Shown piece after piece: positions 10,601 to 47,615 of a stretch of DNA of 64,000 bases. This stretch comes from Sipunculus nudus (Eukaryota; Annelida; Sipuncula; Golfingiida; Sipunculidae), in NCBI GenBank assembly GCA_026874595.1, contig CM049307.1, forward strand, positions 36,746,862 to 36,810,861. The letters run 5' to 3'. The translations under genes and the position numbers were made by a program. The notes under the pieces are model-generated. The model made no database searches, was not told the origin of the DNA, and saw only the letters and a list, made by a program, of their open reading frames with translations. The first letter of the stretch is position 1. The number at the start of each line of letters is the position of its first letter.

Positions 10601-13600
10601 ACCCAAAAATTGACGGGGATCTTCCCCTCTTGTTAAGTGATCCAAAAGTGAAAGATTTTGGATGAAACATTTACAATGCCTCCACAATCTTTAACAGATG
10701 TGGGAAATGTGACCTTGACCTATGACCCCAAAATCAAAAGGAATCTTACATTAGTGGTGGGCCATATAGGTCAAGATTGAAATCCATATGTCAATCCAAA
10801 CTGGAGTTATCATCCAGAAATGAATTTTGAACAGATGGCTCTGTGACCTTAACCTTAGACCTTATGACCCAAAAATTGACAGGGATGTTGGCTGGTGAGC
10901 TTTATGTGCAAGATGGAATTTCTGGTATGCAAAGTTTTGAAAGATGTATGTCATGTGACCTTGAACTTTGACCTCATGGTCCCAAAATCAAGAGGGTTCT
11001 TGCTTTAGTGGTGGGGTATATATAATATAAGTTTGAAATCGATTTGTCAATCCAAACTGGAGTTATCATCCAGAAAAGAATTGTGGTCAGACAACCAGAC
11101 AGACAGACAGGGCGATATTACAGGGCACCCTCTTATTCAAGTGAGACCCTCAAATTAAAAGAGCCTGCCACAGTATATCTTTCCACAAAGTTTAACAAAA
11201 GAGCTAAGACAGAAGCTCGAAAAGTGGTTCAAGCAGCCCTGACTTCCAGCACCTGAAGACTTCTTGGGGAATGGATTCTTCCCCTTGTCTTTTTATACTT
11301 TTCAGATCATTTATGGTTTTGCCCAGGTCCTATACTGTTGGTTCAGCGTCTAGATCCTCCAATATCTAAAGGCCTCTGATGGCAAAAGGGCTTCATGGGA
11401 GAGATAAGAGATGTGTCCTCTGGAGCAGAGTACTAAGTAGTGTCCAACCCATCTCCCAACCTGCTTCTCCTGGTCCACCATTGTTGGTTCAGCATCTAGA
11501 TCCTCCAATATCTGCAGGCCTTTGATGACAAAAGGGCTTCATGAGAGAGATAAAGAGATGTGTCCTCTGGAGCAGAGTACTAAGTAGTGTCCAACCCATC
11601 TCCCAACCTGCTTCTCCTGGTCCACCATTGTTGGTTCAGCATCTAGATCCTCCAATATCTGCAGGCCTTTGATGGCAAAAGGGCTTCATGAGAGATAAGA
11701 GATGTGTCCTCTGGAGCAGAGTACTAAATAGTGTGCAACCCATCTCCCAACCTGCTTCTCCTGGTCCACCATTGTTGGTTTAGCATCTAGATCCTCCAAT
11801 ATCTGCAGGCCTTTGATGGCAAAAGGGCTTCATGAGAGAGATAAGAGATGTGTCCTCTTGAGCAGAGTACTAAGTAGTGTCCAACCCATCTCCCAACCTG
11901 CTTCTCCTGGTCCACCATTGTTGGTTCAGCATCTAGATCCTCCAATATCTGCAGGCCTTTGATGGCAAAAGGGCTTCATGAGAGAGATAAGAGATGTGTC
12001 CTCTGGAGCAGAGTACTAAGTAGTGTCCAACCCATCTCCCAACCTGCTTCTCCTGGTCCACCTTTGTTGGTTTAGCATCTAGATCCTCCAATATCTGCAG
12101 GCATTTGATGGCAAAAGGGCTTCATGAGAGAGATATGAGATGTGTCCTCTGGAGCAGAGTACTTAGTAGTGTCCAACACATCTCCCAACCTGCTTCTCCT
12201 GGTCCACCACTGTTGGTTCAGCATCTAGATCCTCCAATATCTGCAGGCCTTTGATGGCAAAAGGGCTTCATGAGAGAGATAAGAGATGTGTCCTCTGGAG
12301 CAGAGTACTAAGTAGTGTCCAACCCATCTCCCAACCTGCTTCTCCTGGTCCTACATTATTGGTTCAGCATCTAGATCCTCCAATATCTGCAGGCCTTTGA
12401 TGAAAAAAGGGCTTCACGAGAGAGATAAGAGATGTGTCCTCTGGAGCAGAGCAGTAAGTAGTGTCTGACTCATCTCCATTCCTGCTGTCTCCTGGTCCAC
12501 CAAGCACCTCAAAGGTTTGAAGTCGTCGGTAGCATCAGGGCTTCATGAGAGAGAGGAGAGTTGTGTCTTCTGAAGTATAGCACTAAGTAATGTCCAACCC
12601 ATCTCCCAACCTGCTTCTCCTGGTCTTTGATGACTTCCCCTGTCTTGCTCTTCATTGGGGATGGGAGCTGTTCGTACCATGCTGGGCCAAGCTGCAGGTG
12701 GCTCTCAATGCCACTCTTCCTCAAAGATCACTCTGGCTTGGATCTGCCAAAGTTTGGTAAGTGCGGCTCTCTTTAATTTGATCACTGGTTCACTTGCAGT
12801 GATATTTGCCTCAAACCTATCAGTGTTCTCTTTTTTCTTGCCATATGTTGTTATGGTGGCTTTGTTGATGTACTAAGGAAGGAGCCCTATCCTTTATTAG
12901 CACTCTGGAACTGGATCTTTGGAATAGTTTCTATGATTAATTCCTCAAACTCTGTTCTTCTCAGGGTACATAGTCTTGATGGTGTTGTGTTCGCTGTGGA
13001 AGGTGTTACTTAGTTCCTCCACTCTCGACTCAATATCTAGCTCCTTGATGATCTGCAAGTCTTTGATGGCAGGGCTTCATGACAGATGTGTCCTATGGAG
13101 TAGAGGACTAGGTAATCCAAACCTTGGACTTGAGTACTCAGTATGAAATACCTGGACTTGAGTACTCTTTTCAGCCCTAGTAGTAATGGTGGCACATTTT
13201 TTCTCATTCTCATGGGATTCTACCAAGTATTTATGGGGTATTATAACAGTGCCTTACCTTTACAGTGTCTGTGTAAAACATCTAGGGCAGCAATGAGGAA
13301 TTCATGAGCATCTTGTTGTTCATAGCCCGCTAGGTGGCGTGCATGTGTCCACACCAGATGCAGCAGGCGGTATGGTGTATGAGGTGTGCGCACTCCTGAA
13401 TAAAACTGAGAAATCATATATAAAACATTAGTTCCTGAATAAAACTGCAAAACTGTATTTAAGTTATTAGTAAACAAGGCCTACAGGCGTCATGCGAACC
13501 TGTGCAAAGTTTGGGAGTATGAATGTTTATTTTTAAAATTTAATACTGATCCTCTCATGTCCTGCATATCTACCTTAGTCATTATGATTTCAGCCAAATG

Positions 13601-16600
13601 GACGTTTCGGACCTGCATGTTTCGGACTAGGACATTTCAAACTATAATGTATCAGTCACAATATTTCTGATATGTTCTTTTATCCAGGGAGGAATACTGG
13701 GACAGATGAATGGACAATTTGGCTGCATGGTTTCGGAGAAGAACATTTAAAATGTTTTTTTAGCTTTTTCCCTAAAAATCCAAGTTCCTCTTTTAGCCTT
13801 GGTATTGAGTCACACCTATTCATGCATCTTGGCAATGGAGGCTAAGCTTTCCCCCAGGTCAAGGGTACCTAATGTCCCACATGTAACCGCACCACTGACT
13901 CTTACAGACTGAAACTTACCACTGGCTCTAACAGACTGAAACTTGACCAGTTGGCAAATCTGAAATGGTTGGCAGTCTGCCAGAGTTATTTATAGATACA
14001 GAGCGTAATTTGACCTTTTGTAAACTCTGACACAGTTAGCAGGTTCTAGACGTCTAGATGGTGTGTCTAGACACATCTTCTAGACATCTAGACTGTATCT
14101 GGACAACAGGCAGAGCCTGGTCGGTTGCCATGGTGATGTCTGGACTTTACCTGAGTGCACTGATTGACCTCTTCACTTGACATGTTGAAACTTGCCATGC
14201 TGCTAAATCTGTTTTAAAACACTGAAAGCCTTTTTCAACTGGCTACACTGCTTTTTTATAGCTGCGTTTACCGAAACTATTCTTATAAAACTGACAGAAC
14301 AATACCATAGAACAATTCTTGTAAAGTTTTAACCAATCAGCTTAACAGTTTCTTAAAAAAAACAGTTTATAAGCTAGAAGAGTCTAAACTTACATTTTTG
14401 CTTGTAAAAAAAAAACAGATCAATGTACGTGGCGCCACCAAAACCTCAATTTCAGATAAGACACGTGTGTGTGACAAACATTGGCATAAAATTTGGTGAT
14501 GACAGCTCCAGCTGTTTCTGAGATTTTAAGTTTAATATGCTTTTTTGCACAGATGATAAAGTTAAACCTCCTGTAACTCAGCCAAAAATCACAGAACTGG
14601 AGCCATTCAAACAAGTTTGCGAGAGATTGTTCTGGGGATCATTTCTGTGAAATATTGGACAATCTGGCTGGAAAGTTTCTGAGGAGAAGATTTTTATATA
14701 TTTTTTAACTTTTCCTGTATAAAATCTAAGAAAATCACTGAATCAAACCCATTTGAACAAATTTGAATTATCAACATCTCAGGATCATTCATGTGTGAGA
14801 TTTAAGAATTTGACCCAGTGTTTTTGGAAAGAAGTTCTTTGTAGCCATTGAGCAGAAATGGGCTGCTATAACATTTGACTTTATTCAGCTTCCCATAACT
14901 CCGCCAAAAGTCATTGAACAGAGACCATTTGAACAAACATAAGAAAGCACTACCATAGGAGCATTTTTGTGCAATATTAAAAAATTTGGCTTTACGCTTT
15001 CAGAGAAGAAGTTTTTTGTAGTCCTCTGTATGCTTCAGGCACCGTTCACAGCTGTACAAAAAGACCAATGCAGGTGGCGCCACCAATACCTCAATTTCAG
15101 ATATGACTGAAGTGACCAACATTAACATAAAATTTGATGATGATAGTTCCAGCAGTTTTTGAGATTGTAATTTTAGCATGCAAATGACTTAGTTCAACTT
15201 CCTGTAACTCAGTCAAAAATCACCGAACTGGAACCATTTGAACAAATTTGAGTAAGATTGTTCCATTGAACATTTCTGTGAAATACTGGACAATCTGGCT
15301 GGACAGTTTCAGAGAAGAAGATTTTAAGGTTTTTAAGCTCTCTATAAAATCTAAATTAATGCAGATACCCAATAATAATAAGCTCTATAGCACCAAGTTT
15401 CACACTGGACTAATTCTGACATGTAATTTGGAGCTGCTAGCTCCGACGGTTTCTGACTTACAGCCATGGATGGCGGACAGCCAACACTGGACGGTGGACG
15501 GACACAGCCACGCCATCGCATAAGCTCACAGGTTCGCTAAAAATATTATTGACATAAGAATATAAGAAATGTGACCCTTGAAAACCCTGAATATTACTAT
15601 AAACATTGAAATGTGTTGATTTTAGTGTTCCAGCAAACGATGGGGTACAGGAAACACAGACAGTGGCCACGTTTTATTTATGTGTAATAGTGAAATCATG
15701 GTAATACATATGGAAATCAAAATGGGATTCAAAACTTGTACCAAAATAACAGGAAAGACAGGCTGCTTCTTTTCCATTCATATTTCTTGAGTGGCAATGC
15801 ATGCACCACTGATACAGATACAGATCTATTACATATTTCATAACTACTTGTAAGTCAGAGAAAATAAAATTCAATAAAAAGAATTTTTCCCCTGCTAGTG
15901 ATGTCTAACTGATTCCTATACAAGTACAAAAGGAATTAATTAACACCTAAATGATAAATATAGAAAAAGTAGTGAGCTTTTACCTCTTGGAAGAGGCGAG
16001 ACATTTCACATACAAGACACTGTTGCGATTCTTTGAGCATTTGGCAGTTGTGGCGGTCGGCTAGGAAATAATCTCGCAGCAGTGGGGTATGTGTTAGTGC
16101 CTGAACTATACAGTTCATGAAACATGTGTTGCCCAAATTTATCAGGCCCCTGAGACCTGCAATGTAATAATATTATTAGTACACCATGTTCTAAATAGTA
16201 AAATGCAAAATGAAATGAAGTTGGTTGTTCAATTCCATAATTAACCATTAATGATAATATTTTCTTCCACACATGCTTATTCAAACCTTTCATCCAACCA
16301 TAAAAAGTTATATGAACGAAAAGAGTCTTACTGTAAGGACAGTACATATGGCATGAGTTCTATAGTATTATATCATATAACTTTATCTATTACTTATTAA
16401 AGCAAAAGCTTGCAAAGTTGACACCTGTCAGGACCTATTGGGTGTCACCATATTTTTTTTTATTTCTAAAGCCTTGTATTGTGGTGTTAAATTCCATAAA
16501 CCTTTAGATTCTAGCAGATTCTACAGCTAATGCAAAAAAGCATGGGGACAAGTAATCATGGTACACTCTTAAGTTGTCAGCATTCCTGAAACATCAGGTA

Positions 16601-19600
16601 ACATTAGTTTTAGAAGTATATAGGTGGACAGTAATGGTACATTGTTTGACAGAAGTGGTATATATCAATTGTGAAAGTACCAGTAACCTTGTAGGACAAT
16701 GTTTGACAGAAATGGCACATACCAACTGTGGATATATCAGAAAATGTGCACTGTATGTTTGACAACAATGGTATTTACAAACTGTGGAAATACCAGTAAA
16801 TCTGTCGTATAATGTCTGACAGCTATGGTACACGTCAATTTCGGAAGTAACAGTAATTGTGTATTGCAATATGTGACAGTAGTGGGTAATACCTATTGTG
16901 GAGGTACCAGTAACTTTGTAGCACAATAATGGACAGACACAGTACATATCTATTATGGATATACCTGTAAATTGTAGTACAATGTTTGACAGAAGTGGTA
17001 TATACTACAGTGAAACTCCCCTAAGCCGGACACTCAAGGGACTGGAAGATTATGTCCGTATTTGTGAGTTGTCTTGTTTAGAGGAGTTTGACATATTTCG
17101 TCAATTCATCATTGAATGTGTCTGATATCCTATGTTTTCATTAAATGTACGCCTAATTTGAAATAGGCTACATAAATTTGATTTAAATCATTTTCAAAAC
17201 AGCTTAAATATGCACTTGCAATTTATAAAATATAATTATTTAAAAAAAAAGAAAGTAATACTGGCTAGGCCTCACAAACTAATCTTGGCAGTTTCACTTC
17301 TACGTACCATGCTTCATCTTCTAAGCAAGCGGCAGTTCATGGATGGGTTGCACTTGGCATATTGTAGATTGATTATTGACAGCATCCGTGCATGATTATT
17401 TGTTAAAGGATATAGTCTTTTTTTTTTACTTTTTTTTTTGAGGTAACCTCGGCTGAGGTTCGAACTCACAATCTCCTGGCTTTGAGTCCTGCGCTCTACC
17501 CCTGAGCCACAGAAGCCAGTAAAGGATATAGTCTTTACCACGCATTCCCCATAACAAAGTACAAACAAACTATAATTACAGCTTCACGGGCCGGAAGCCT
17601 ATCCCAAGCACGAACGGTTGTTTTTGATGGTGCCCTTGTCGAATGAAAAGCTGTTTCAGTTTGAAAGCTTATTTTTTTCCAAACTGACCTGCAAATCTTA
17701 ATTTAATAATGACTTTGTTATTAACACATTTCAATACTGCATATTTACATATAACATTTACAATGGTTGACCAAATTACCCTTGTCCTCGGGCTGTCGCT
17801 TTGACCAAAACAGGCCATATGAGGTCATGACCCAGCAAATATATGAACAAAAAATAACTCACGATGTCTGTCCGCTTTAGAGGGTCGTAATATGTAATGG
17901 ATATACTGGCCGGACGGGAAAGTTTGTCCTTGGTCCGAGATAGTGAGTTGTCTGCTTTTCTGAGTTTATGTTAAACATAATATAGAGGCAAAAGTGAAGG
18001 GACTGAGGTTTAGTGTCCACATTAGTGAGTTGTCCACCTTACTGAATTGTCCGCAAGTAGGAGTTTCACTGTATTTGTGAAAGTACCAGTAATTTTGTAT
18101 TACAATATTTGACAGAAGTGGTACATACCAGTTTTTGTGGTACCAGTGACTTTGTTGGACAATGTTTAACAGAAAAGGTACATACCAATCATGGAGGTAC
18201 CAGTAATATTTAAGTATAATGTCTGACAGAAATGTCACATACCAATTGTAGAGGTACCAAAAACCTTGTATTAGAATGTTTGACAAATGTGGTACATACC
18301 AATTGTGGAGTACCAGTAAATTTGTAGTACAATGTTTGACAGAAGTTGTACATACCAATTGTGGATGTACCAGTTCTTAGTAGTACAATGTTTGATGAAA
18401 GTGGTACATATCAATGGTTGAGGTACCAGTACCCCTGTAGTATGTTTGACAGAAGTGGTACATACCAATTGTGGAGGTACTAGTAACTTTGTAGTATGTT
18501 TGACAAAAGTGGTACATACCAATTGTGGAGGTACCAGTAACTTTGTAGTATGTTTGACAAAAGTGGTACATACCAATTGTGGAGGTACCAGTAACTTTGC
18601 GTCTCTTTGGATGTTGCTGTAACAGCTCTAGCTCCCCACCAGTCGGTTCCCACTGCTGGAACAGCACACGGATACCTGCAAAACAGTCACATATTCATTT
18701 ATCAACTTGATTAAAATTCATAGCAGATATTTTTCAAATAAAGAACTAAAACATGACAGTTATACCTGCAAAACACTTGCAAAATCTCTAACCAATATCA
18801 ACCCATTAACCACAGCAACTTCATCAAATACAGAAAGTGAACAGCAAGCAAATATTATTGTATTACGAGGAGTTAAATGCTGATATACAGAACTTGTACA
18901 GCAATGTACACTTAAAGATAACTACGGACAAAACAGTCACCTTGGTTTTCATGATCCATCTGATAACTATATGACACTGTTTAGAAACAGAATCACTTTA
19001 CATTCACAACTGAAAAGTTGAGAGTGCCTACTACTATAATGATTTGTTTTCTTTATAAAGCTAATCATATTTAAACTAAGGCCCCCTTAACAAACTTATT
19101 TATATGTGAAAATCAAGAACTGGAAGGTGGACCCAGTGTTCTTCGACTTAATCTGACAATTTGGTTCATGGCTATGTACTCACAGCTTGGATCATGGTCC
19201 CTGGCTTCATATTAAACCATCCTTTCAAGATGGAAAGATGCTTATGATCATCATGTACTATAAATCACAGTTTGGTATGTTAAAGTACATATTTGTTAAA
19301 GAATTGTTTCCTACTTAATCTGCATTAGTGGAGGTGTATACTTCACTCTGATGAACAACTCAGTAAGTGGTCCATATAATTTACCACAGATAACTCACCG
19401 AGCGACTTGGCTGATAATTCCCTTTGTTCTTTTGCTATGTCCTCTAATTCTCCATCATAAATATAGTCTCCACAGGAGAAACAAAACACAGCACCATATG
19501 TAAGATCAACGGCTGAAATAAAATTATTACATAATCAGGGTTTGGTAATCTGCACCTCTAGTTCTTCATCTATGATACAAAGATTAAGTTCTTTTGTTGA

Positions 19601-26400: not shown

Positions 26401-29381
26401 AATGCAAAATTACAATCACCAACAGGACCTTGATAAAGTGGTAATATTTTTAAGTGGTTGTCTAAACAAGGTTTTATATTAAGAGCAAAGAAGAATCAGG
26501 ACCATGAACAAGTAGTCATTATTTTGTGGTAGTCACTAAACAGGTGGTCTTTAGGCAAGGTTTTACTGTATAATTCTTCTACGATAGCTAATCCTTTGGT
26601 AGTTTTATTCAAGCACAGCTTTGCAGCTAGCTATTAAAAAAATTCAGGCATGACAGAGGATTTTCAGTGTCATCTTGTGTAAGCCATACTATTTGGGTAA
26701 CCTTATGATGGTCCAGGTTATGATTTCCCTGTTACAGATGCTGCTTCAAAACATGCCTTTCAAGCATTCCTGGATTCTTTGAGAGCAGAGACAGCTGACC
26801 AGGGGGTCCATGTCCTGGTGGTCAGTCCTGCCTACATACAGACCAACCTGTCACTGAATGCTGTCACAGGATCAGGGGAAAAGTATGGAGGCAAGTATTT
26901 AAAAGAAGTTTAAAACAGGCACACAGGGGTAGGGATGAGTGTAGTATTATTAATGTATTATTGTATCCCCAGACAAAGTCGGGGGATACTATGTTTTCAT
27001 ACCGGTCCCCCCGCCGCCGCATATGAATCTTGTTGGCGTGATAACTCAAAAAATATTTCACGGATCTTTACCAAACTTGGTATATGTTTAGATATGGGTG
27101 AGTGGACGACGCCTATTTAAAATGAGGTCATGACTAGGAGAGTGTCCTTGACCTTGAATAGGTCCAATTTTGGGGAAAATCACACAAATTCTTAAATATC
27201 TCAAGAAATCTTGCATGGATTGATCCCAAAATCAAGTTGATGGAAGATCATGGATAGGGTTGTCATGTTCCAGAAACTGGGGGCGCCACCTGTTATTCTT
27301 TACTTGTTTTTGTGCCATTTAATACCCCCAAAATTGCTCCTTGACAGTACTGTGAGCATTATAAGTCAAAAATTAATGGATAGATTTCTTTTATATTATG
27401 CATATACATAGATATGGGTTATGGGATGATGTTTATTTAAATTGGGGTCATGACCTTTTCTATGAGAGTGGCTTTGACCTTGAATATTGCCATATATGGT
27501 AAAATCACACAAAATCATTAATTTCTCAATAAGGGATGCATGGATTGGTCCAAAATCAACTTGACCAAAGATCTTGGATAGTAATGTCATGTACCAGAAA
27601 CAGGTGGCGCCACCTGTTATTCTTTTACTTGTTTTCATGCCGTTTAATACCCCCATCATTGCCACTTAACAGTACTGTGAGCATTATAAGTCAAAAACTA
27701 ATGAACAGATTTCTTTCATATTATGCATATACACAGACATGGGTTATGGGATGTTGTATATATATATTGGGGTCATGACCTTTCCTTTTAGAGTGGACTT
27801 GACCTTGAATATTGCCATATATGGTGAAAATTACACAAAATCATTAATATCTCAATAAGGGATGCATGGATTGGTCCAAAAATCAACTTGATCGAAGATC
27901 TTGGATAGTATTGTCATGTGCCAGTAACAGGTGGCACCACCTGTTATTCTTTCACTCGTTTTCGTGCCATTTAAGACCCCATCATTGCCACTTACTAGTA
28001 CTGTGAGCATTGTAAGTCAAAAACTAACAGACAGATTTCTTTCATATTATGCATATACATAGATATGGGTTATGGGATGATGTTTATTTAAATTGGGGTC
28101 ATGACCTTTCCTTTTAGAGTGGCCTTGACCTTGAATATTCCCATATATGGTGAAAATCACACAAAATCATTAATATCTCAATAAGGGATGCATTGATTGG
28201 TCCAAAAATCAACTTGACCGAAAATCTTGGGTAGTGTTGTCATGTACCAGAAAAAGGTGGCGCCACCTGTTATTCTTTTACTTGTTTTTGTGCCGTTTAA
28301 TACCCCATCATTGCCACTTGACAGTACTGTGAGCATTATAAGTCAAAAACTTATGGACAGATTTCTTTCATATTATGCATATACATAGACATGGATTAGG
28401 GGATGATGTGTATTGAAATTGGGGTCATTACCTTTTCTATAAGAGTGACCTTTTCTATGAGTGTGGTCTGATATTAATTGTTGCTGAAGATAGGGGGCCT
28501 ATTCTTAAAGGGGGGGATTAACTGTCTGGGAATACTATGGCACCTGCGGTGCCAAGAAATGTCTAGTTGTTCATTATATTCTCATAGACTTTGATAGTCT
28601 GTAATTAAACTACTCATTGGATATAAATGCCAGAAGGCGCATTGTATTACTGTATAAATTGCATTGTTATTAATGGGACATGATTATACAAAATCTACAA
28701 AAATGTCATAAATATCTTATGATTCTCTAGAAGTGAGAATAAAATACATTAATATAGGTTACAAATTTTGCTTTAGTCTATTTAAAAGTGTAATTTGATA
28801 CCTGCTTTTTTTAGTAAATAATAACAGTCTCAAAAGTATTCATGGTAATACAGTGTCCTAAGTGTTAAGATTCTTTAAATCTTCTGCTTCTTCACTGATT
28901 CCCAGAAAAACAGATTGTAGAAAACCTGTTGTCTTCTTTATTATGAGCACTTTAACAGAGAAAGATCTTTCTTTATTTGAGTATGAAGTGCACAATATGG
29001 AGGTGATAGAATTCAATTGCATCAGAAAACAGGTCCATAGATTTGAATTGAGTTTTGAAGCACAGCATACCCTGTTGTTAAATGTAGGTTATACGAATAT
29101 ACTTAATCCAAGATACTGTATATTTAAAGAGCCCATATTTGCTGTTTCATTTATCATCATTTATTTCAGTGATGGATTCAACCACAGCCAGTGGGATGAG
29201 TCCGCAATATGTGGCCAGACAGATTGTCCACGCTGTTGAGACGAACCAAAATGATGTCATCCTTGCACCATTCACGCACAAACTTGCCATGTATATACGT
29301 ACAATATGCCCCTCACTGTACTTTTGGCTTATGATGAAAAGGGCAAAAAAGCAAAGGGCAGAGATGAAAAAAGCCAGCTAG
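23300..29381 (+). CDS. DHRS7B: DHRS7B-like short-chain dehydrogenase/reductase, complete
   Basis: Six exons (23300-23447, 24099-24202, 24788-25007, 26116-26208, 26738-26890, 29170-29381) join with consistent phases into 309 residues ending in TAG. The N-terminus has a hydrophobic anchor (about residues 5-25) followed by RKK. The SDR fold shows TGASSGLG (41-48, cofactor binding), NNAG (123-126), catalytic Ser176 in VSSMQG, and Y189-AAS-K193. Segments such as [33 protein letters not shown] and KYGVMDSTTA match human DHRS7B (325 aa) closely. The family comprises membrane-anchored NAD(P)-dependent oxidoreductases; DHRS7B has been linked to peroxisomal ether-lipid synthesis. The last intron starts with GC, not GT. 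The start ATG directly follows a TTTCACAG acceptor-like sequence, so an upstream noncoding exon is likely. Confidence 0.95.
24099..24202 (+). CDS. DHRS7B: DHRS7B-like exon 2
   Basis: It encodes [19 protein letters not shown] to NNKK, with the ARR motif that follows beta-2 of the Rossmann fold. The acceptor is TTTGCAG|CT and the donor AAA|GTAAGT. Confidence 0.92.
24788..25007 (+). CDS. DHRS7B: DHRS7B-like exon 3
   Basis: It encodes [15 protein letters not shown] to FFGQVALTK, including [13 protein letters not shown]. The acceptor is TTTGAG|GAGGAA (an alternative AG three bases on would drop one Glu) and the donor AAAG|GTGTGT. Confidence 0.92.
26116..26208 (+). CDS. DHRS7B: DHRS7B-like exon 4
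   Basis: It encodes [30 protein letters not shown] and the first base of the catalytic Tyr codon. The acceptor is TTTCAG|CA and the donor CAT|GTAAGT. Confidence 0.93.
26738..26890 (+). CDS. DHRS7B: DHRS7B-like exon 5, GC splice donor
   Basis: It completes Tyr189 and encodes [17 protein letters not shown] to GSGEKYG. The acceptor is TTACAG|AT. The donor reads GGAG|GCAAGT: only this GC site keeps the frame into VMDSTTA of the next exon. Confidence 0.92.
26966..28566 (+). mobile_element. Nonautonomous Helitron with four ~325-bp internal units
   Basis: It starts with TC after an A, with hairpin GTATCCCC/GGGGATAC. It ends with hairpin GGCACC-TGC-GGTGCC, nine bases, then CTAG followed by T: the Helitron 3' signature with A/T target. 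The interior has four units marked by GGTGGCGCCACC (about 27284, 27604, 27931, 28257), each also with ATGACCTTT and CCTTGAAT. It lies in the last DHRS7B intron. No coding capacity. Confidence 0.7.
29170..29381 (+). CDS. DHRS7B: DHRS7B-like last exon
   Basis: It encodes [20 protein letters not shown] to AEMKKAS and the stop TAG. The acceptor is TTATTTCAG|TG. A basic C-terminus follows a short hydrophobic stretch ([10 protein letters not shown]), as in the family. Confidence 0.94.
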
Positions 29382-46679: not shown

Positions 46680-47615
46680 GCAAACAAGGGACCCATGTGG
46701 GACCATTATGTACAAACCCATGGGTCCCATATGGGCTAACCCAGTGGGCACCCGTGACTTTTTGCTCCCGGGTCCAATGTTGGCTAGGACGTGGGGCCAA
46801 CATGGGTATACATGTGGGCCCATGGAGGGTACCAGGTGGGGCCTGTATATGGGGCCCACGAATGGCTACCAATGGGCTAAACAGGGGCAGACACAAGGGT
46901 CCTTGGAGGGTTTGTCACTACATGCAAACAAGGGACCCTTGAGGTACATGTCCATGGGCCCCATATGGGCTAACCCCGTGGGCACCCGTGACTTTTTGCT
47001 CCCGGGTCCAATGTTGGCTAGGTCGTGGGGCCAACATGGGTACACATGTGGGCCCATGGAGGGTACCAGGCGGGGTCTGTATATGGGGCCCACGAATGGC
47101 TACCAATGGGCTAAACAGGGGCAGACACATGGGTCCTTGGAGGGTTTGTCACTACATGCAAACAAGGGACCCTTGTGGTACATGTCAATGGGCCCCATAG
47201 GGGCTAACCCCGTGGGCACCCGTGACTTTTTGCTCCCGGGTCCAATGTTGGCTAGGACGTGGGGCCAACATGGGTACACATGTGGGCCCATGGAGGGTAC
47301 CAGGCGGGGTCTGTATATGGGGCCCACGAATGGCTACCAATGGGCTAAACAGGGGAAAACACGTGGGGCCTTGGATGGTTTGTCACTACATGCAAACAAG
47401 GGACCCATGTGGTACATGTCCATGGCCCCATATGGACTAACCCCGTGAGCACCTGTGACTTTTTGCTCCCGGGTCCAATGTTGGCTAGGACTTTGGGCCA
47501 ACATGTGTACACATGTGGGCCCATGGAGGGTAACAGGCGGGGTCTGTATATGGGGCCCAAGAATTGCTACCAATGGGCTAAACAGGAGCAGACACAAGGG
47601 TCCTTGTTGATATAA
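46680..47615. repeat. 234-bp tandem array, four units, rich in CATGGGCCC palindromes
   Basis: TTTTTGCTCCCGGGTCC recurs every 234, 234 and 233 bases (46759, 46993, 47227, 47460). Because 234 is divisible by three, several frames on both strands stay open, including an ATG frame of 273 codons (46627-47448). Treated as repeat, not gene. Confidence 0.9.

What the first reader, a model, noticed from the sequence alone, without database searches (positions are those of the whole stretch)
16575..18600. Minisatellite that copies a splice donor: tandem array of the USP22 exon 4 / intron 4 junction
Each unit on the minus strand has the last nine codons of exon 4 (KVTGTSTIG), the donor GTATGT and intronic bases. 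The copies at 18520 and 18466 keep an identical ATTG|GTATGT donor 54 and 108 bases from the first, in the same frame and phase with no stop between. Use of these would add exactly 18 or 36 residues between the zinc finger and catalytic domain. At 18412 the GT has become AT, and from 18356 outwards the period is 56-57. So the youngest copies touch the exon and the array decays with distance, as if it grows at the exon edge. It could yield isoforms, act as decoy U1 sites, or vary between individuals.
Basis: partly seen in the sequence, partly recalled or inferred. Interest (0 to 1): 0.82.

Follow-up and report, generated by a model that had tools for sequence, protein, structure and literature searches.

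The report
Minisatellite copying a USP22 splice site
A stretch of DNA holding the end of one USP22 exon and its splice signal has been copied about fifteen times into the next intron; it is real, it is of a kind known from lancelets, and in this animal it is one of several such arrays rather than a special device.

Summary
On the minus strand the last 25-26 bases of USP22 exon 4 and about 30 bases of intron 4 recur as a 54-57 bp tandem array (18599-16637, 16 junction-centred units), split by a 1,064-bp inverted-repeat element. The copies ending at 18520 and 18466 match the exon copy at 54/54 and 52/54 and keep ATTG|GTATGT in frame (+18, +36 residues).

The 13 older units fit a star around the exon's own unit: one old burst, then a small recent re-expansion at the exon. 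Beyond the third unit there is no significant gradient, and donor columns are not better kept overall. Among 200 exon match ends sampled in the same genome, four more arrays copy a junction, by reading. Mostly non-exonic points fall in repeats at least as often, so junctions are not favoured.

This is the 'mirage' minisatellite described in amphioxus, here in a probable lophotrochozoan. Human IFI6 shows such donors can be used. Most likely 18574 stays the main donor and the +18/+36 forms are minor or absent. No RNA or population data were available.

The parts
18574..18675 (-). USP22 exon 4 (102 nt; ends [12 protein letters not shown], phase 1)
   Evidence: acceptor TTTTGCAG and donor ATTG|GTATGT read directly; joined with exons 5-6 it matches ubiquitin hydrolases in PDB
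18545..18599 (-). unit 1: authentic exon end (18599-18574) plus first 29 nt of intron 4
18491..18544 (-). unit 2, 54/54 identical to unit 1; copied donor after 18520, +18 residues in frame if used
18437..18490 (-). unit 3, 52/54; copied donor after 18466, +36 residues in frame if used
18072..18436 (-). exon-side older units with exon-like ends at 18412 (AT instead of GT), 18356, 18300, 18243, 18186, 18129, 18072
17008..18071 (-). 1,064-bp element with CAGTGAAACTCC inverted ends and TA on both sides, inserted inside a unit
   Evidence: a 269-nt piece of it has 39 other scored genome matches at 83-89% identity, 40 of 602 candidates scored
17404..17535 (-). tRNA-like SINE nested in the element, between two copies of AAGACTATATCCTTTA (bounds approximate; SINE by eye)
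   Evidence: sequence; two copies of the flank found; ARAGORN calls no tRNA
16637..17005 (-). far older units with exon-like ends at 16950, 16893, 16836, 16779, 16723, 16666; only 16723 keeps GGTATGT
15984..16156 (-). USP22 exon 5 ([13 protein letters not shown]...), the acceptor partner, same phase
   Evidence: Pfam UCH 1.4e-14

Best explanation
This is a junction-copying ('mirage') minisatellite. Tandem duplication, by slippage or unequal exchange (mechanism inferred), took in the end of USP22 exon 4 and the start of intron 4 and multiplied it into the intron in one old burst (shown: star-like units around the exon copy). The copies decayed freely while selection on the protein and its splice site kept the exon's own copy (inferred). 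A transposable element later landed in the array (shown). More recently unit 1, by then with a 3-bp loss in its intron part, was duplicated again to give units 2 and 3 (supported by the shared loss and 54/54, 52/54 identity). It is one case of a wider habit: tandem arrays arise all over this animal's introns and sometimes include a splice junction. The pre-mRNA therefore offers three identical donors 54 nt apart. I expect 18574 to be the main one, with +18 and +36 residue USP22 forms at low level or absent (inferred, untested).
For: Exon copy equals the consensus of the 13 older units except one base and the 3-bp loss. Star test: 0.274 observed v 0.288 predicted over 78 pairs. The 3-bp loss is in the three exon-proximal units only. 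All 12 reported genome matches to the unit lie in this array (the tool scores only its best candidates). Four further junction-copying arrays among 100 sampled loci, by reading: L033 (donor, 47 bp), L095 (donor, 65 bp), L037 (acceptor, 52-60 bp), L084 (acceptor, 26-31 bp). Control: a repeat signal at 261 of 3020 mostly non-exonic points, 8 of 200 exon match ends and 7 of 1058 points inside matches. Amphioxus papers report the same architecture, with splicing that seems regular (passages).
Against: No RNA: main use of 18574 is not shown. Identical local context at three donors gives no reason in sequence for choosing the first. The non-coding part of unit 1 is also near-ancestral (1 change plus one deletion, against a mean of 4.8 changes in the 13 older units), which selection on the coding part does not explain; re-expansion or a constrained intron start is needed. 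In the six older units nearest the exon the donor is kept somewhat better than chance (2 of 45 changes).
Confidence: 0.72

Rival explanations
1. Working tandem donors: the copies at 18520 and 18466 are used at a meaningful level and give USP22 proteins with 18 or 36 extra residues just before the catalytic domain, as in human IFI6, where two downstream repeat units serve as donors.
For: Identical donors and flanks, 54 bp = 18 codons, same phase, no stop. The extended exon would be 156 or 210 nt. IFI6 precedent (passage in PMC4526556). Computed U1 pairing energy is the same for all three (-5.5).
Against: The spacings in the four other arrays (47; 65; 52-60; 26-31) mostly do not keep frame, so the in-frame period here may be luck. 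Amphioxus mirages are reported not to disturb splicing (passages). The extra residues would sit next to [13 protein letters not shown], a point that the two USP2 alignments shown cross without a gap (the third alignment shown starts only at this point).
Confidence: 0.25
2. Decoy donors: the array is kept because its many intact donors bind U1 and slow or tune intron 4 splicing, or divert transcripts to decay through donors beyond the stop after 18380.
For: 9 of 16 units keep GGTATGT; 2 of 45 changes fall in the donor columns of the six near older units.
Against: Over all 13 older units the donor is no better kept than the rest (p 0.58); the +1 G is among the less kept columns (69%); in the L033 array 1 of 11 copies keeps GT.
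Confidence: 0.05
3. An independent intronic minisatellite family that happens to resemble the exon end.
For: Introns of this genome are rich in such arrays (TRF arrays of period 15 or more cover 10.1% of the window).
Against: 25 exon bases plus 29 intron bases match a copy at 54/54; the exon end is coding in an open frame, and all 12 reported matches to the unit lie here.
Confidence: 0.01
4. Assembly artefact: the two near-identical copies are an assembly duplication.
For: Units 1 and 2 are identical.
Against: Unit 3 differs at two sites and the older units at many; the array sits in a 98-Mb contig.
Confidence: 0.02

Closest known systems
'Mirage' minisatellites of amphioxus (Adh3, globins BflGb6 and BflGb9, troponin C, PGBD5)
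   Same: Tandem repeats that span an exon-intron boundary, copy splice signals into the intron and occur at donors and acceptors; units of 10 to about 160 bp (passages of PMC3087553 and PMC3902484).
   Different: Host is probably not a cephalochordate: its Hox cluster holds a homeodomain followed by KLTGP, recalled as the Lox5 mark of lophotrochozoans. Splicing and length variation, reported there, are untested here.
Human IFI6 (G1P3, 6-16) minisatellite with multiple splice donors
   Same: Repeat units carry donors downstream of the exon; two downstream units could extend the protein.
   Different: In IFI6 use of two downstream units is reported (passage of PMC4526556, citing Turri 1995, which is not held); here use is unknown.
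Internal tandem repeats at exon-intron boundaries of human segmental duplications
   Same: Minisatellites at exon-intron boundaries that can change splicing (passages of PMC2812944).
   Different: Those vary between paralogues and have transcript support; here there is a single locus without transcripts.
Intronic minisatellites and exon duplications of earthworm metallothionein genes
   Same: Large minisatellites in an intron, and duplicated exons absent from the transcript, in a lophotrochozoan (passages of PMC12783039).
   Different: The passages seen do not describe units that copy an exon-intron junction.

Membership tests
mirage minisatellite | tandem units that hold exon end plus intron start (or the reverse) | tested here: met
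   25-26 nt of exon and about 30 nt of intron in each unit
mirage minisatellite | the authentic junction is the terminal unit and the copies lie in the intron | tested here: met
mirage minisatellite | regular mRNA splicing is not disturbed | not testable with these tools
   no RNA data
mirage minisatellite | length instability between haplotypes or cells | not testable with these tools
   one assembly only; units 1-3 look recent
mirage minisatellite | found in cephalochordates (where described; not a mechanistic criterion) | tested here: not met
   KLTGP after a Hox homeodomain, L112; its lineage meaning is recalled, so the test is indirect
IFI6-type multiple-donor minisatellite | near downstream units carry a donor in the exon's frame | tested here: met
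   donors after 18520 and 18466, +54 and +108 nt, no stop
IFI6-type multiple-donor minisatellite | downstream units are used as donors | not testable with these tools
   no RNA data
USP22 / Ubp8 ubiquitin hydrolase | UCH catalytic domain in exons after exon 4 | tested here: met
   Pfam UCH in two window frames; best PDB match 6tbm_Q, 4.8e-23 (recalled as yeast SAGA Ubp8)
USP22 / Ubp8 ubiquitin hydrolase | zinc finger encoded before the catalytic domain | not tested
   exons 2-3 look like it by eye; no profile was run on them, and the name USP22 rests on recalled sequence

The most novel reading that the evidence does not exclude
Junction-copying minisatellites are a standing, genome-wide feature of this probable lophotrochozoan (4 of 200 sampled exon match ends by reading, or 4 of 140 without the mostly intronless kinase loci; donors and acceptors alike). 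Its spliceosome must therefore routinely pick the true site among nearby identical copies by position rather than by local sequence, and at USP22 the choice sometimes slips to give in-frame +18 and +36 isoforms.
Probability: 0.35. Interest if true: 0.68.

Novelty: new member of a known kind. Interest (0 to 1): 0.5.

Why it matters
Splice-site choice is often studied with engineered duplicate donors (recalled). Here nature supplies two donors in units identical over 54 nt and a third with 2 changes, in a conserved gene, and apparently several more cases in the same genome. If only the first is used, position must decide; if not, a minisatellite is changing a chromatin regulator by steps of 18 residues and may do so differently between individuals. 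It also suggests that mirages are not confined to cephalochordates.

Tried and rejected
Rejected: dispersed minisatellite family; pure gradient of growth at the exon; general conservation of donors. Sample hits read and not counted as junction copies: L020, L092 and L101 (array beside, not across, the junction), L023 (AT-rich, though the UCH set's third crossing alignment is probably this one), L108 (copies acceptor-like ends without exon), L089 (weak). The 30 kinase loci L039-L068 gave 0 of 60 ends; they are mostly single long frames, so I quote rates with (200) and without (140) them. Match ends are profile ends, not verified splice sites; some UCH matches hold stops.

Led nowhere: the SINE query, the Ras family and the molluscan haemocyanin family did not complete; Turri 1995 is not held. 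One search used a wrong-frame reading of exon 4 and is superseded. Paper searches answered; listings were capped (5 of 2,773 papers; 12 of 154; 8 of 37). Within what they listed I saw no report of exon-junction 'mirages' outside chordates; aimed at it most directly. Passages opened to check: PMC7960049 (there Mirage is a transposon name), PMC4039745 (intronic minisatellites near alternative exons in C. elegans, 12 of 26 places shown), PMC3862624, PMC12783039, PMC4732748, PMC2572611 and PMC2915984 (reference lists only).
Full report
What is there. On the minus strand, exon 4 of a USP22-like gene ends ...[12 protein letters not shown] at 18574 with donor ATTG|GTATGT. The last 26 bases of the exon (18599-18574) and about 30 bases of intron recur head to tail to 16637. 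Wrap-around alignment gives 16 junction-centred units, the first being the authentic junction. Spacing is 54, 54, 54, 56, 56, then 57 with one further 56. GGTATGT is intact at 9 of 16 units. The gene is a ubiquitin hydrolase: the frames of exons 5 and 6 match Pfam UCH (1.4e-14 and 4.4e-7); the joined exons 4-6 find 6tbm_Q best in PDB (4.8e-23), a chain named only as ubiquitin hydrolase that I recall as yeast SAGA Ubp8; and a UCH match to profile positions 170-249 lies about 10 kb beyond the window on the same strand, probably the same gene. The name USP22 is from recalled sequence.

Interruption. A 1,064-bp element (18071-17008) with CAGTGAAACTCC inverted ends sits inside a unit with TA on both sides; joining the flanks restores an unbroken unit. 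It holds a tRNA-like SINE, judged by eye, between two copies of AAGACTATATCCTTTA; ARAGORN calls no tRNA. A 269-nt piece of the element finds 602 first-look candidates, of which 40 were scored: this copy and 39 others at 83-89% identity. This suggests, without proving it, that the insertion is not recent; the array must be older than the insertion.

History of the units. Unit 2 is 54/54 and unit 3 52/54 like the exon copy; the other 13 range from 37/53 to 50/53. The consensus of those 13 equals the exon copy but for one base and a 3-bp stretch that is missing in units 1-3 only. Pairwise differences among the 13 fit independent decay from one ancestor (0.274 observed, 0.288 predicted, 78 pairs, r 0.89), and neighbours are not more alike (Mantel p 0.68 for the 13, 0.80 for all 16). 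So there was an early burst, then a small later expansion of unit 1. The identity trend with distance holds for the 15 copies (Spearman -0.58, p 0.023) but not without units 2 and 3 (-0.36, p 0.23).

Donors. Over the 13 older units the nine donor columns are as conserved as the rest (0.855 v 0.829, p 0.58). Split after the fact, the six units between exon and element carry 2 of 45 changes in the donor columns (binomial p 0.019) and the seven others 14 of 73 (Fisher p 0.027), but 4 of 57 windows in the first group score as low. I take this as a hint only.

Reading frame. From exon 4 the frame stays open to 18380. Donors 1-3 keep the frame into exon 5 (GT of the glycine codon at 16156-16155). 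Use of donors at 18356 or beyond would follow a stop codon.

Is it special? I compared the 100 bases round each end of profile matches with the next 400 bases of flank (250 or 170 where less was held). The sample is 100 loci, 200 match ends: 60 UCH, 60 from kinase loci that are mostly single long frames, 40 TCP-1, 40 kinase exons. Eight scored 45 or more and 5 crossed the end by at least 10 bases. Match ends are not verified splice sites. Reading the hits, four copy a junction: L033, exon end FIMDGLHEDLNK|GTAAGT, 47-bp units, of 11 copies 1 with GT and 6 with GC; L095, ACTAAG|GTAGAT, 65-bp spacing, three further copies in the short flank; L037, GATATTCAG|ATTGCAGTGG, 7 of 8 upstream copies with AG; L084, TTTCAG|GTATAACCTCTT, five upstream copies. 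The search patterns for L095 and L084 themselves required the donor or AG, so their retention is read from the even spacing (65, 65, 65; 31, 31, 29, 26, 31) and not independently counted. So by reading 4 of 200, or 4 of 140 without the kinase loci. The same test on regularly spaced points gave 79 of 850 in the window, 125 of 1860 in the flanks of 60 loci and 57 of 310 in three other stretches, 261 of 3020 in all, and 7 of 1058 inside matches. These control points include the array itself and some exons, and neighbouring points can fall in one array. Crossing hits at 5 of 140 ends against 239 of 3020 points give Fisher p 0.07, in the direction of fewer at junctions, and against 4 of 1058 inside matches p 0.002; one of the 5, in the UCH set, is not among the four that I count by reading. 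Thus arrays arise across introns, junctions are sometimes included, and exon interiors are largely spared. Nine other exon stretches of the window, tested at the ends of the peptides that I used to find them (not all splice sites), score at most 28 against 121 for exon 4.

Host. The genome is 1.43 Gb in 153 contigs. Homeobox matches cluster on contig C12, and one homeodomain there is followed by KLTGP, which I recall as the Lox5 mark of lophotrochozoans; the species was not determined.

Known kind. [quoted passage not shown]). In human IFI6 two downstream repeat units are used as donors (passage of PMC4526556; the original paper was not seen). Here the first architecture is met; use is open. 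Earthworm metallothionein genes have intronic minisatellites and duplicated exons that are not in the transcript (passages of PMC12783039), but junction-copying units are not described in what I saw. I therefore file this as a new member of a known kind, in a lineage for which my searches listed no earlier report.

Noticed in passing
L033, rev. comp. 1612-2138 (G000:C4, near 55197843-55198052): About 12 units of 47 bp (TRF 11.9) copy the end of a USP exon (FIMDGLHEDLNK) and its donor; 6 of 11 copies read GC where the true site has GT.
   Followed up: partly
L037, rev. comp. 1100-1590 (G000:C1, near 46769983-46770189): Eight upstream units, spaced 52-60 bp, copy an acceptor and the exon start (IAVGKF) of a USP exon.
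   Followed up: partly
L095 and L084: Junction-copying arrays at a kinase donor (65 bp) and a TCP-1 acceptor (26-31 bp).
   Followed up: partly
L092 oriented 510-725; L020 rev. comp. 1149-1502: Arrays that begin a few bases beside a splice site without including it (42 bp, 97% alike; 40 bp, 80%).
   Followed up: no
window 7596-41163: USP22, a short-chain dehydrogenase (adh_short, + strand, about 24-29 kb) and TMEM11 (Mito_morph_reg, 1.8e-74) are neighbours, as I recall for human 17p11.2 (USP22, DHRS7B, TMEM11).
   Followed up: partly
G000 contigs C61, C62, C66, C72, C73, C75, C89 (two), C99: Nine 547-residue Cpn60 frames without stops and with the same score on high-numbered contigs; sequence not inspected, possibly bacterial contigs in the assembly.
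   Followed up: no
window 11336-12502, 27139-28452, 46718-47606: Large tandem arrays (146 bp x 8, 326 bp x 4, 234 bp x 3.8); the first lies in the USP22 intron after exon 6. TRF arrays of period 15 or more cover 10.1% of the window.
   Followed up: no
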